DNA of 45,494 nt, from positions 1 through 45,494 of the IMG/VR virus record IMGVR_UViG_3300020156_000043. One strand, 5' to 3'. Under the pieces are notes generated by a model, which made no database searches, was not told the DNA's origin, and worked only from the letters and a program-made list of their open reading frames with translations. Every line of letters begins with the position of its first letter. Position 1 is the first letter of the stretch. This document shows, one piece after another, positions 16,243 through 42,419 of this stretch. Source of the DNA: a virus. A program made the position numbers and the translations under genes.

Positions 16243-16304
16243 TTCCTACAGGAGAGTTACTCGCCGCTCGCCGAAGTAAAGGGGTTTTCACTCTCCTGTA
16301 GGAA
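16243..16304 (-). promoter_or_regulatory. Perfect 15-bp hairpin between capsid and next gene
   Basis: Arms at 16243-16257 and 16290-16304 are exact reverse complements (TTCCTACAGGAGAGT type), with a 32-base loop. On the transcribed strand it follows the major capsid gene, and the AGGA of the downstream gene is inside the stem. It lacks a T run, so it fits an mRNA 3' stabiliser, a processing site or a translation control better than a classic terminator. It shares CCTACAG/CTGTAGG ends with other intergenic hairpins in this genome. Confidence 0.8.
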
Positions 16305-16322
16305 CCTTAACCTTTCTTCTAG

Positions 16323-17552
16323 TTACCCTTCAATAATGTCGTTAAGAGCGCCGTGAGCGCTACGCTGATTAGTACCGAACTCGTAGTAAACCTTCATAAG
16401 ACCTTCCCAAGCATCGTAGTCCCGGACCCACTTAAGGACAGTTCCATCCTTGTCAGCCCAGTGCCACGGACGGTTACGGAAAATCTTAATCTTAGATTCC
16501 GTAATGAAGTACATACGGTTAGCAGGAGCATCAGTGTCTTCAACCATCGGAATTTCCTTAGCTCCGTAGTTGAAGGGAAGCCCCTGGAAACCACCAGCGT
16601 ATTCCTTAGTATCGGTGTAACGCCTCTGCTGAGTAAGCAGGTTGAAGTAAGCACGACGAACACCAAGGTTGGTAAAGATAGCAGAAGGACGTTGACCGGA
16701 CTTAGTACGAATAGCGTCCACAGTCTCGATCATAATACCTTCGGAAAGAGCCCGAAGAGTTCCAGCTCCAGCCGGGTTGTTCCGGATGGTAGCCTTCCAC
16801 TTGCTCTGAACAGCAGGATCTAAACCGTGAAGAACAAGAGTATCTGAAACCATATTACCGAAGCCAGAAGGCTCTCGCTTGGTACCGCCGACATAGTTAC
16901 CTTCACGGTAAAGACCTTCAGCAGTAGTAGCAGTAACGTCGCCAGCAGTACCGTCATCGTTAACGTAAGTAACGACGTTAGTAGATTCATTGATAGCAGT
17001 AATACGCTTGTTAAGACCAACAGCAGCGCCGTTAGCCCGAGTAAGAATGTCGAAGCGCATTCCCACTTCAAGGAACTGAATATTGTTTACGGTAACAGAA
17101 GAAGCTCCATCAGCAGTAACGCTAGCGAGAAGGCCGCTGGAGTCACCGTAAGTAATACGGTTCTCATCCTTAGCGATGTCGTCCTTAACTCGCGTCATTT
17201 CCTCATCAAGACCGCTAGCGAAAGCCTGAGCATTAGTTTCCGCTAACTCCATCACCTGACCCGTAATACGAGTCCTGGCGTAACCGTACTGAAGAGGAAC
17301 GTGAACAGAAGCGTAACCCTGAGCACCAGCAGCGGGGAGAATTTCCATCTCTCGCCGCCAACCAATACCGGTGTTACGAGTAACGTGAATAGGAAAGTCG
17401 ACATACTTACCGCCGACAGTTTCGACAACGCCTTCACTTGTTCGCTCAATCCGCTTACGAGCGACGTTCTCGTCATTAACCTGATCCTCAATACGACCTG
17501 CGTAAACCTCCTTCAGAATCGCATCAAGGGTGGTGAGTGTTGCCTGGGCCAT
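16323..17552 (-). CDS. Major capsid protein
   Basis: 409 residues. The N-terminal arm (LDAILKEVYAGRIEDQVNDEN) and the core with GRVIDFP-like YVDFPIHV, then FGNMVSDTLVLHGLD, RPSAIFTNLG and NRMYFITESKIKIFRNRPWHW, are those of HK97-fold capsid proteins. Residues about 143-220 form an extra beta domain (VTADGASSVTVNN...VGMRFDIL). A related domain makes up much of the neighbouring 171-residue protein (18990-19505). AAGGAG lies before ATG. Codon use is even and GC slightly high, as expected for a very highly expressed gene. Confidence 0.93.
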   Translation of the reverse strand: MAQATLTTLDAILKEVYAGRIEDQVNDENVARKRIERTSEGVVETVGGKYVDFPIHVTRNTGIGWRREMEILPAAGAQGYASVHVPLQYGYARTRITGQVMELAETNAQAFASGLDEEMTRVKDDIAKDENRITYGDSSGLLASVTADGASSVTVNNIQFLEVGMRFDILTRANGAAVGLNKRITAINESTNVVTYVNDDGTAGDVTATTAEGLYREGNYVGGTKREPSGFGNMVSDTLVLHGLDPAVQSKWKATIRNNPAGAGTLRALSEGIMIETVDAIRTKSGQRPSAIFTNLGVRRAYFNLLTQQRRYTDTKEYAGGFQGLPFNYGAKEIPMVEDTDAPANRMYFITESKIKIFRNRPWHWADKDGTVLKWVRDYDAWEGLMKVYYEFGTNQRSAHGALNDIIEG

Positions 17553-17565
17553 TTAACTTAGCTCC

Positions 17566-18450
17566 TTACATTCCAGCCTGATTGGTTTGACCAATCACGT
17601 TTGCGATAAGGTTCTTAATATCCTTATCGGGAATCGAGCCAAGGTTCTGTGGTCCGTTCTGAGGCACAGCACCTCCACCAGCAGATGAGAGAACAGCAGG
17701 AGGAAGATGCTCAGTAGATTGCTGCATCTTCTCAATATGCTGCTGTAACATGTTCTGCCAAGCTTTAACGGCAGCTTCCCCGTCTTCACCGTTAGAAATC
17801 TTAGTCAGAACATACTCGTCATCGAATTCCCCATACTCCTGCTTAAGCAGGTTAAGGTATTCGTCAAGCTCTGCGTCTTGCTGCGACTCAGTAGTTCTGG
17901 TATCTTGATCCATAACCCACTGAGCGAGCGCCGTAAGAACTTGCTGCTGTTGGTCGATCTGAGCTTTAATCTCAGGAGGTAACCCCTGGAACTCTTGGCT
18001 CGATTCGCCGATTTCGGACTCGCCAGTCTTTTGTGCCTCTTCTTCAATACCAAGCTCACTCTTTAAAACTTCATAAAGAGTTTCGGGCTCTTCGTTAAGA
18101 ATTCGATAAACCTCAGCCATTTGCTGAGTAGTCTCTTCATCCCAACCAAGAGGCTCGTAATGCTTGTATTGATTCTTCAGGTCCTGAAAGCGACGAGTCA
18201 CGCCTGCATCAAACTTCTTAATGTACGGCTCCATAATAGAAACGTGCTCTTTAGGAGCGTCCTTAAGAAGTTCCTGCACAAATGAGCTGTATCCAGATTC
18301 CTGGCCCTGGCTCTGAGATTCTTCTACAGAGTCTTCTGTACCTTCACCACCTGAAGCTCCACCACTCAATGATTCCGGGTTTGCTTCCCAACTCATTAAG
18401 GGGGAGAAACTCAGGTAGTGAAGGCCCTGGAAGGGCTTGCGGACTAACAT
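17566..18450 (-). CDS. Scaffold-like head protein
   Basis: 294 residues, acidic, rich in Glu and Gln, helical and with low-complexity stretches (GEGTEDSVEESQSQGQ; QIDQQQQ), directly upstream of the capsid gene: the usual place and style of a capsid scaffold that is lost during maturation. An AGGAG site five to six bases before ATG 18450 supports this start over the Met at residue 19. Confidence 0.82.
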   Translation of the reverse strand: MLVRKPFQGLHYLSFSPLMSWEANPESLSGGASGGEGTEDSVEESQSQGQESGYSSFVQELLKDAPKEHVSIMEPYIKKFDAGVTRRFQDLKNQYKHYEPLGWDEETTQQMAEVYRILNEEPETLYEVLKSELGIEEEAQKTGESEIGESSQEFQGLPPEIKAQIDQQQQVLTALAQWVMDQDTRTTESQQDAELDEYLNLLKQEYGEFDDEYVLTKISNGEDGEAAVKAWQNMLQQHIEKMQQSTEHLPPAVLSSAGGGAVPQNGPQNLGSIPDKDIKNLIANVIGQTNQAGM

Positions 18451-18504
18451 TTTAACTCCTAATTGTTATTGAGGCTGTTCCGAAAATTCGGTCCTGGCCT
18501 ACAG

Positions 18505-18990
18505 TTACTTACGCTTCCTAGGCTTAAACGGGTTATTCAGGTTCTTCTTAACAAAACCGCCAACAGCTTTCTTAGCATTTTCAGTTCTAGCAGCACTTCC
18601 AGCAGACAAACTCGCAGAGATATTAGCGAGAGGCTGAGTTACTTTCTTAGCACTCTCAACATTTCGCCTACCAAGAACTCGCTGTGCTGTACTCTTATTA
18701 ACCTTACGAGAAGCAGCAGCAGGAGCAGAAGCAGGCATCTTAACTTCCTTGCGATCTGCTCGCTCTCCACCTCGTTGCTGAGTGCCTCCAGCAGAAGTAG
18801 AAGTCGAACGCGTAGAAGCTTGCTTATTAGCCGTACTAGTAGCAGACTTCAAACGATTCTCTCCGTACATTCTACGGACACCTTCTTTAAACTCTTCGCT
18901 AGCATCACCTCTACCAGCTTGAGCTAAAGAAGCCGACATACCCTTCTTTTTGATCTCGTCAATAACAGCTTGACTAACTTTGATAGCCAT
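18505..18990 (-). CDS. Basic head-associated protein
   Basis: 161 residues, strongly basic and rich in Ala, Ser, Thr and Lys, ending NPFKPRKRK. It overlaps the stop of the upstream gene by one base. A DNA-binding or internal head role is plausible from charge and place, but no family was recognised. Confidence 0.75.
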   Translation of the reverse strand: MAIKVSQAVIDEIKKKGMSASLAQAGRGDASEEFKEGVRRMYGENRLKSATSTANKQASTRSTSTSAGGTQQRGGERADRKEVKMPASAPAAASRKVNKSTAQRVLGRRNVESAKKVTQPLANISASLSAGSAARTENAKKAVGGFVKKNLNNPFKPRKRK

Positions 18991-41730: not shown

Positions 41731-41789
41731 GAGAGTAAGAGTTGAGCGCGAAGTTCCCCCACGAGAAATTTTGCGATCCTCTTACTCTC
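41731..41789 (+). ncRNA. Hairpin GAGAGTAAGAG...CTCTTACTCTC
   Basis: Perfect 11-base arms (41731-41741, 41779-41789), 37-base loop, ending nine bases before tRNA-Leu. Could guide processing of the tRNA precursor. Confidence 0.55.
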
Positions 41790-41797
41790 AAATTCTG

Positions 41798-41879
41798 GCC
41801 CCTGTGGTGGAACGGATATACACAGTTGGCTTAAAACCAACCGCCTAAAGGCATCTCGGTTTGAATCCGAGCAGGGGCA
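41798..41879 (+). tRNA. tRNA-Leu(TAA)
   Basis: Class II tRNA: acceptor GCCCCTG/CAGGGGC, anticodon stem GTTGG/CCAAC with loop CTTAAAA, anticodon TAA (41832-41834), a long variable arm (CGCCTAAAGGC), T arm TCGG-TTTGAAT-CCGA and discriminator A. It reads TTA codons, frequent in this phage and rare in high-GC actinobacteria. CCA is not encoded. Confidence 0.93.
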
Positions 41880-41882
41880 CTT

Positions 41883-42281
41883 ATGAGAGTATATGGACCT
41901 TATTTCAGAAAAGACGGAAGACAGCACGTTGTTATAGTTTATGGCGACGGTAGTAGAAGAACAGTATCCTACCCTAAGTATTTGATGGAGCAGCATCTAG
42001 AAAGAGAGCTAGAATATGATGAGACTGTTCATCATATTGATGGAGACTTTACCAATAACGCTCTAGAGAATCTGCAAGTCCTAGATAGAGTAGAGCATCG
42101 TAAGCAAGACGCTAAGAAAGCCGAAATAGGTAACTACGTATGCGCTAATTGTGGTACTGAATTTAGGCGGCCTGTATCTATTGTTGTAGCCAATCAACTA
42201 ACGCAAGAAAAAGCAGGACCCTTTTGTTCTAAAAGATGTTCTGGAACTTATGGAACTGACGTTCAGAATAATAGGGCTTGA
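41883..42281 (+). CDS. HNH endonuclease with zinc ribbon, between tRNAs
   Basis: 132 residues. The HNH core is ETVHHIDGDFTNNALENLQV with a following H (about 46-72), then a zinc ribbon (YVCANCGTEF ... FCSKRCSGTYG). It starts three bases after tRNA-Leu and ends six bases before the interrupted tRNA, so it sits exactly between the tRNAs. It is a good candidate for the enzyme linked to the insertion in the second one. Confidence 0.85.
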   Translation: MRVYGPYFRKDGRQHVVIVYGDGSRRTVSYPKYLMEQHLERELEYDETVHHIDGDFTNNALENLQVLDRVEHRKQDAKKAEIGNYVCANCGTEFRRPVSIVVANQLTQEKAGPFCSKRCSGTYGTDVQNNRA

Positions 42282-42287
42282 TTACAA

Positions 42288-42419
42288 GGCAGAGTAAGTT
42301 ATTCAGGAAAACTACTACAGTCCAGTGAGTTTGGTCTTGAAGGTGCACCGATTCACTGGCAGGTTACGTACATGGCCTGTTCTCCCTGTAGGAAGAGCGT
42401 TCGATCCGCTCCTCTGCCA
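42288..42419 (+). tRNA. tRNA with about 65-nt insertion in the anticodon arm
   Basis: Acceptor GGCAGAG/CTCTGCC (7 of 7), D stem AGTT/AACT (loop with GG), T stem GAGCG/CGCTC (5 of 5) with TTCGATC loop, discriminator A: a well-formed tRNA body. The anticodon stem CTACAG (42315-42320) and CTGTAG (42386-42391) pairs perfectly but encloses 65 bases instead of about 7. The insert folds into CCAGTGA/TCACTGG (42322-42328, 42353-42359) and CAGG/CCTG (42360-42363, 42376-42379). It is too short for a known group I intron. The anticodon cannot be assigned. Confidence 0.7.

What the first reader, a model, noticed from the sequence alone, without database searches (positions are those of the whole stretch)
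16243..42391. A family of hairpins with common CCTACAG...CTGTAGG ends, and genome-wide excess of that word
Seen: intergenic stems at 16243-16304, 31500-31527, 41352-41419 and 41689-41728, a weaker one at 27405-27440, and the anticodon stem of the odd tRNA all use these ends with different interiors. Counting by eye, the 7-mer CCTACAG/CTGTAGG occurs about 45-50 times in the window; about 5-6 are expected for a random 7-mer on both strands. Many copies are inside genes. Inference: a protein-binding, RNA-processing or repeat-element signal, partly carried by codon habits.
Basis: partly seen in the sequence, partly recalled or inferred. Interest (0 to 1): 0.7.

Follow-up and report, generated by a model that had tools for sequence, protein, structure and literature searches.

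The report
Phage-wide priming sites for RepB'-like primase
A short DNA word scattered through this phage is most likely the start signal read by the phage's own DNA-copying primase; relatives spell it slightly differently, and the copies stand at unusually even distances, so the start sites of DNA synthesis can be read straight from a genome.

Summary
CCTACAG/CTGTAGG is the most over-represented 7-mer (51 copies, 6.1 expected), and synonymous-codon permutation does not explain it (coding 37 vs 7.6). The hairpins exist, except that 27405 is weak, but they are a side issue. The word belongs to a family C-N-ACAG-G(R)G that occurs, strand-balanced, throughout related actinophage genomes in different dialects (CTACAG, CCACAG, CGACAG). 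It is not imposed by the host: five unrelated phages on Jasmine's host lack it. It tracks one gene, a fusion of an RSF1010 RepB'-type AEP primase and a RepA-type helicase (window 44815-45494 continuing at 3-1193). Relatives with the same capsid genes but another primase lack the word. Siphophages of Mycobacterium, Gordonia, Microbacterium and Pseudomonas with unrelated capsids but this primase carry a cognate word, CCACAC (template strand GTGTGG). Copies are more evenly spaced per strand than other words of the same genomes (combined p about 1e-22). Phage T7's known primase site shows the same signature, only on the strand reported as its lagging template. Best explanation: template recognition sites for repeated primer synthesis. 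No biochemistry supports this yet. I found no earlier report in the papers searched.

The parts
1..45494 (.). Genome-wide dispersed word C-N-ACAG-G; here CCTACAG(G): 27 copies on + and 24 on -; CTACAG core 119 copies (68 on + and 51 on - of the closed unit)
44815..45494 (+). N-terminal part of the primase-helicase gene (GTG start): RepB'-type AEP primase domain, PF16793; runs into the terminal redundancy
   Evidence: (E 1.3e-5, 25.6 bits vs cutoff 24.3)
3..1193 (+). Rest of the same gene after the terminal redundancy (whole protein 580 aa): RepA-type hexameric helicase domain, AAA_25
1190..2944 (+). Family A DNA polymerase next to the primase-helicase
42456..43340 (+). Cas4/PD-(D/E)XK-type exonuclease of the replication/recombination module
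43337..44074 (+). Sak4-like ATPase of the same module
16243..16304 (.). Intergenic hairpin, 15-bp stem TTCCTACAGGAGAGT; two opposed copies of the word
31500..31527 (.). Intergenic hairpin, 9-bp stem CTCCTACAG; two opposed copies
41352..41419 (.). Intergenic hairpin, 12-bp stem TCCTACAGGGAG; two opposed copies
41689..41728 (.). Intergenic hairpin, 11-bp stem CCTACAGTAAG; two opposed copies
42288..42418 (+). tRNA-like element whose anticodon-stem position is CTACAG/CTGTAG, with an insert of about 70 nt

Best explanation
The word is the template recognition site of the phage's own primase. That enzyme is a fusion of an RSF1010 RepB'-type archaeo-eukaryotic (AEP) primase with a RepA-type hexameric helicase. 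As the helicase unwinds the genome, the primase binds 5'-CTGTNG-3' (here CTGTAGG) on the single-stranded template and starts a primer a few bases to its 5' side, which begins each lagging-strand fragment. Because a 6-8 base site is rare by chance, selection keeps one copy roughly every 0.5-1 kb on each strand, mostly by choosing among synonymous codons. Each lineage carries the spelling its primase prefers: CTGTAG, CTGTGG and CTGTCG in the podophages, GTGTGG in siphophages with the same primase. Shown here: the excess, its strand balance, dialects, even spacing and its tie to this primase gene across capsid types and hosts. Inferred: direct recognition, which strand is read, and use in Okazaki priming.
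For: (1) Excess independent of codon use and present in relatives with dialects: L045 CGCTACA 57 vs 4.2, L069 CTGTGGC 59 vs 5.8, L071 ACCTACA 40 vs 5.1. (2) Named phages: MW202795 CTACAG 87 vs 30, Jasmine CCACAG 96 vs 19, DS1 CGACAG 107 vs 33, Shocker CGACAG 77 vs 34. (3) Not host-driven: five other phages on Jasmine's host show no CCACAG excess. (4) Follows the primase: structural genes are shared by word-positive and word-negative relatives (24/24 and 6/6), but the primase-helicase is in 22/24 vs 0/6; word-negative relatives have a different AEP primase by motif. (5) Same primase, unrelated virion genes, same word class: CCACAC in Muddy, GTE2, PMBT14, Lebethron, MW202455 and CherryonLim, GCCACAC in Golden and Teagan, CACAGG in Strzyga. 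(6) Glenn has polymerase, Sak4 and exonuclease homologs but a different primase, and lacks the word. (7) Even spacing per strand: all 24 strand sets lie in the more regular part of the distribution of other words of the same genome (percentiles 0.001 to 0.40), Fisher p 2.5e-22. (8) T7 control: known primase site GGTC is the 4th most over-represented 4-mer and is evenly spaced on the top strand only (percentile 0.011 vs 0.95). (9) N-domain fold matches RepB' 3h20 (E 4e-11, Z 17.4); C-domain matches RSF1010 RepA (Z 26). (10) Characterised AEP primases read GTG: pRN1 (PMC8076596), NrS-1 GTGG (PMC8718748), RSF1010 ssiA (PMC4434180); GTGTGG and CTGTGG contain it.
Against: No primer-start mapping or binding data exist. 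Inside the podophage clade, dialect distance correlates with primase distance (Spearman 0.48) no better than with a putative scaffold protein (0.49; capsid 0.39), so co-evolution with the primase is not isolated there. Individual sites are only weakly conserved between 75%-identical relatives (6 of 21 vs 0.16 background), which fits turnover but is not positive evidence. Eight of 54 primase-bearing contig fragments show no clear word. Even spacing in the window itself is only suggestive (7-mer CV 0.66 and 0.69, z -1.8 and -1.5). The window's CTGTAG lacks the GTG trinucleotide of characterised AEP primases.
Confidence: 0.85

Rival explanations
1. A Chi-like or exonuclease-control site: the word regulates the phage or host recombination nuclease (the module includes a Cas4-like exonuclease and Sak4).
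For: Short, asymmetric, dispersed and lineage-specific like Chi; exonuclease and Sak4 often co-occur with the word.
Against: Glenn has exonuclease, Sak4 and polymerase homologs but not this primase, and lacks the word. Host-type Chi is excluded by five unrelated phages on the same host. Even per-strand spacing and the T7 primase control are not predicted.
Confidence: 0.05
2. Dispersed operators of a phage DNA-binding protein (repressor or nucleoid protein), comparable to the stoperators of cluster A mycobacteriophages.
For: Stoperators are also short, asymmetric and dispersed (recalled, not tested here).
Against: Copies lie inside genes on both strands at about one per 400 bases, strand-balanced. 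The same word class spans phages of unrelated families and hosts whose shared element is the primase module.
Confidence: 0.04
3. An RNA-level element: hairpins for mRNA processing, stability or termination, with the coding copies as by-products.
For: Four intergenic hairpins and one tRNA-like element use the word at their ends, more than chance in this window (P 0.0006).
Against: Most copies have no partner nearby; no general excess of convergent pairs in ten genomes. Equal sense and antisense use in genes. No T-run after the stems.
Confidence: 0.03
4. A codon-pair or mutational-context habit of the host or phage.
For: Most coding copies sit in one frame (NCT ACA G.. or NCT GTA G..).
Against: Excess after codon permutation, larger excess outside genes, both strands, absent from other phages of the same host, evenly spaced.
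Confidence: 0.02

Closest known systems
RSF1010 RepB' primase with its ssiA/ssiB single-strand initiation sites, and RepA helicase
   Same: Primase domain matches RepB' by Pfam and fold; helicase domain matches RepA best of all solved structures; RepB' recognises a specific template site with a GTG initiation motif (PMC4434180).
   Different: RSF1010 has one 40-nt hairpin site per strand and replicates in leading-strand mode with separate RepA and RepB' proteins; here the two are fused, the site is 6-8 nt without an obligatory hairpin, and there are tens of copies on each strand.
AEP primases of plasmid pRN1 (ORF904) and phage NrS-1
   Same: AEP primase plus helix bundle; recognise GTG or GTGG in the template and start the primer directly 5' of it (PMC8076596, PMC8718748). 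Jasmine CTGTGG and siphophage GTGTGG contain GTGG.
   Different: Window dialect is CTGTAG; the helicases of pRN1 and NrS-1 are of other types; no genome-wide excess or even spacing of their sites was reported in the papers read.
Bacteriophage T7 gp4 primase-helicase and its (G/T)2GTC sites
   Same: Fused primase and hexameric helicase; short asymmetric recognition site; site over-represented and evenly spaced on the strand reported as lagging template (strand from PMC12839067).
   Different: T7 uses an unrelated DnaG/Toprim primase with a zinc-binding domain and a shorter site with a far weaker excess.
Dispersed genomic words: Chi sites, HIP1, DNA uptake sequences, mycobacteriophage stoperators
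   Same: Short words spread through a genome with lineage dialects; uptake sequences also form paired hairpins (recalled from general knowledge).
   Different: Here the word follows a primase gene across hosts and virion types and is evenly spaced per strand.

Membership tests
RepB'-type AEP primase (PF16793) | Pfam profile match above the curated cutoff | tested here: met
   Window 25.6 vs 24.3 bits; Muddy 43.3, PMBT14 31.9, Golden 29.7
RepB'-type AEP primase (PF16793) | AEP fold closest to RepB' | tested here: met
   Foldseek 3h20 E 4.2e-11, 3h25 7e-9; VIA Z 17.4 and 17.0, S-2L PrimPol 18.4, next 10.1
RepB'-type AEP primase (PF16793) | Catalytic acidic residues and histidine of AEP motifs I-III | tested here: met
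   Invariant D93, H132, D161, R172 (L153 numbering) in the aligned homologs, window included
RepB'-type AEP primase (PF16793) | Helix bundle domain after the catalytic domain | tested here: inconclusive
   Model has a helical region at 222-305 and Foldseek extends over it in 3h20, but the domain was not searched alone
RepA-type hexameric helicase of RSF1010 | Closest solved structure is RepA | tested here: met
   1g8y E 3.3e-9 by profile; Z 26.2 vs 22.5 for the next family
Primase recognition site | Primer synthesis in vitro depends on the motif | not testable with these tools
   needs biochemistry
Primase recognition site | Motif present wherever the cognate primase is, absent where another primase replaces it | tested here: met
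   exceptions 8 of 54 short fragments, and 2 of 18 primase-replaced contigs with z just over 3
Primase recognition site | Spaced for Okazaki fragments on the template strand | tested here: met
   with T7 control; for the window itself only suggestive
Chi site of the host nuclease | Shared by other phages of the same host | tested here: not met
   host chromosome not tested
Intrinsic terminator hairpins | Stem followed by a T-run | tested here: not met
   Flanks of the four stems read have no T-run on either strand

The most novel reading that the evidence does not exclude
A phage genome in general carries its primase's template motif as an over-represented, evenly spaced word, so primase specificity, template strand and direction of replication can be read from sequence alone; word, spelling and spacing co-evolve with the primase and constrain codon choice genome-wide. 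Arthrobacter phage Anansi (GCACAC, DUF3987 primase), MW202473 (AACCGC, Toprim/VapE primase) and T7 (GGTC) may be further cases.
Probability: 0.5. Interest if true: 0.88.

Novelty: new variant of a known kind. Interest (0 to 1): 0.78.

Why it matters
Primase recognition sites have been mapped for few enzymes, and where primers start along real genomes is still debated even for T7 (PMC12839067). If this reading is right, the sites are visible as a statistical signature: an enriched, evenly spaced word in a dialect specific to the primase lineage. That makes primase specificity testable from sequence for hundreds of phages, including Mycobacterium phage Muddy, predicts lagging-strand polarity (GTGTGG is about twice as common on one strand in five siphophages), shows a replication constraint written into synonymous codons, and gives many natural specificity variants of one AEP primase family for structural work.

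Tried and rejected
Codon bias: rejected by synonymous permutation. Host-imposed word: rejected with five unrelated phages of Arthrobacter ATCC 21022; the host genome itself was not tested, and a search of 296 genomes of the phylum found only distant terminases apart from the phage contig already known. Hairpin family as the main function: rejected. Rfam: no hit. Within-clade co-evolution (Mantel): inconclusive, structural genes correlate as well. Position-by-position conservation of sites: weak. Orientation switch along the window marking an origin: not seen (P 0.18). NrS-1 itself was not fetched (accession not known). L5 was not in the collection. The PDB sequence profile of the primase domain alone found nothing, although Pfam and fold search did. 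Literature searches for over-represented primase sites in phage genomes found no precedent.
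Full report
THE OBSERVATION. The window is a tailed-phage genome of about 45.4 kb: bases 45369-45494 repeat 5-130, so the contig closes on itself. CCTACAG/CTGTAGG occurs 51 times against 6.1 expected from trinucleotide composition and is the top 7-mer; its core CTACAG occurs 119 times against 30. Permuting synonymous codons over the genome keeps protein sequence and codon usage but yields only 33 +/- 5 CTACAG in genes against 97 observed, and 7.6 against 37 for the 7-mer; both orientations and several frames contribute, and the excess is stronger outside genes. 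Four of 28 perfect stems carry the word, above chance, but most copies have no partner, and opposed pairs are not generally enriched in ten genomes.

A WORD FAMILY WITH DIALECTS. Relatives found by terminase in viral contigs were tested the same way. Most have a dominant word of the same frame, C-N-ACAG-G, but spell it differently: CGCTACAG in L045 (CGCTACA 57 vs 4.2), ACCTACAG in L071, GCCACAG in L069 (59 vs 5.8), CGCCACAG in L064, TCTACAG in L039. The motif is asymmetric and equally frequent on both strands. Cultured or complete named phages show it too: the Manatee Spring podovirus MW202795 (CTACAG), Arthrobacter phage Jasmine (CCACAG, 96 vs 19), Cellulosimicrobium phage DS1 and Microbacterium phage Shocker (CGACAG).

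NOT THE HOST. Glenn, Korra, Vulture, Sonny and Anansi infect the same strain as Jasmine (Arthrobacter sp. ATCC 21022) and show no excess of CCACAG.

THE WORD FOLLOWS A PRIMASE. Comparing gene content of 24 word-positive genomes and 6 word-negative relatives, the capsid, portal and terminase genes are shared by both sets, but a primase-helicase of about 550-645 aa is in 22 of 24 positives and no negative, and the DNA polymerase in 23 of 24 and none (two of the positives, L025 and L066, carry the word weakly). Five of the six negatives carry a different protein of about 830 aa with AEP motifs. Conversely, phages whose virion proteins and hosts differ but which encode a homolog of this primase-helicase (found at 22-29% identity) share a cognate top word: CCACAC in Mycobacterium phage Muddy (65 vs 28), Gordonia phage GTE2 (79 vs 30), Pseudomonas phages PMBT14 (72 vs 17) and Lebethron (84 vs 25), the Manatee Spring myovirus MW202455 and Gordonia phage CherryonLim; GCCACAC in Microbacterium phages Golden and Teagan; CACAGG in Brevundimonas phage Strzyga. 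Glenn separates the primase from the rest of the module: it has homologs of the polymerase, Sak4 and exonuclease but a Prim-Pol/PriCT primase, and neither CNACAG nor CCACAC is enriched. In 54 further primase-bearing contig pieces, some from genomes already counted, 46 show the word family and 8 do not; among 18 contigs of the primase-replaced branch, 2 reach z 3.

THE ENZYME. In the window the gene starts at 44815, runs to the contig end and continues at 3-1193. Its N-terminal part matches Pfam RepB_primase above the curated cutoff, as do most of the siphophage homologs tested. A model of the primase half of a homolog (pLDDT 91.5) matches the RSF1010 primase RepB' (Foldseek E 4e-11; Z 17.4) and the S-2L PrimPol (Z 18.4) far above other AEP enzymes. 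The C-terminal half matches RSF1010 RepA best of all solved structures (Z 26). It is thus a fusion of the RSF1010 primase and helicase types.

SPACING. A site needed for restarting synthesis should recur at bounded intervals on a strand. For 12 named genomes the spacing of the word was compared with all other 6-mers of similar count in the same genome. Other words are slightly clustered (mean z about +0.5), whereas the word is more regular than nearly all of them: for example Muddy GTGTGG CV 0.51, Golden 0.39 and 0.40, Teagan 0.44 and 0.48; Fisher p 2.5e-22 over 24 strand sets. Five siphophages have the GTGTGG orientation about twice as often on the top strand (50:21, 59:27, 45:29, 63:27, 57:23), with the stronger regularity mostly on that strand, as expected if one strand is the main lagging template. 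In the window the 7-mer shows the same tendency without reaching significance.

POSITIVE CONTROL. T7 has an unrelated primase with a known site, (G/T)2GTC. With the same tests GGTC is the fourth most over-represented 4-mer and TGGTC ranks 5 of 512 pentamers. GGTC, TGGTC and GGGTC are evenly spaced on the top strand (percentiles 0.011, 0.044, 0.022) but not on the bottom strand (0.95, 0.56, 0.91). The top strand is the one on which priming sites are expected over most of T7 (PMC12839067).

MECHANISM. AEP primases of pRN1 and NrS-1 read GTG or GTGG in the template, and pRN1's helix bundle holds the motif while the primer starts directly 5' of it (PMC8076596, PMC8718748); RSF1010 ssiA also has a GTG initiation motif (PMC4434180). 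Read on the complementary strand, the words here are GTGTGG (siphophages), CTGTGG (Jasmine, L069, L064), CTGTCG (DS1, Shocker) and CTGTAG (window), that is STGTNG. The simplest model is that CTGTAGG is bound on the single-stranded template and a primer starts just to its 5' side. This step is inferred; no priming experiment exists for any of these enzymes in the material searched.

LIMITS. Dialect distance inside the podophage clade does not single out the primase. Sites turn over quickly between relatives. Association could reflect another protein inherited with the primase, though none with this distribution was seen. The hairpins remain unexplained in detail: they lack T-runs and may be double priming sites, processing elements or coincidence.

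NOVELTY. Primase sites and RepB'-type primases are known. I found no report of genome-wide, evenly spaced, dialect-bearing primase words in phages in the papers searched; the paper describing Jasmine was searched for repeats and motifs and shows no such word.

Noticed in passing
window 42288-42418: tRNA-like fold (acceptor GGCAGAG/CTCTGCC, T arm GAGCG-TTCGATC-CGCTC) with an insert of about 70 nt where the anticodon loop should be; an interrupted or decayed tRNA.
   Followed up: partly
window 41505-41577: ARAGORN reports a tRNA with a four-base anticodon (gttc).
   Followed up: no
window 5-130 and 45369-45494: The contig ends repeat each other, so the genome is complete or circularly permuted although classed as linear; the primase gene spans the junction.
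   Followed up: yes
window 31300-32600: GAAAGGGCA repeated before ATG starts of a run of short open reading frames; Shine-Dalgarno-like, 13 copies of GAAAGGGC in the window.
   Followed up: no
window whole: Palindromes AGATCT (2 vs 21.7), GAGCTC (2 vs 20.9) and CAGCTG (5 vs 23) are strongly depleted, as if avoiding restriction enzymes.
   Followed up: no
L132 (Microbacterium phage Shocker): A second dispersed word, CCTTTACAGG (CTGTAAAG 29 vs 0.7), is enriched beside CGACAG but is not evenly spaced.
   Followed up: partly
L143 (Arthrobacter phage Anansi): GCACAC 61 vs 16.5, evenly spaced (GTGTGC CV 0.53); its annotated primase matches only DUF3987 in Pfam.
   Followed up: partly
L142 (MW202473): AACCGC 88 vs 19 and AGGGGC 50 vs 11.5 are dispersed through a podovirus with a Toprim/VapE primase.
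   Followed up: partly
L076, L078, L081: Word-negative relatives with the other AEP-type primase show a mild excess of CGGATC (z 3.7 to 7.1).
   Followed up: no
window 30875-30945: Repeated GAGTAACTGTTTACTTA units in the long noncoding stretch between the divergent gene blocks.
   Followed up: no
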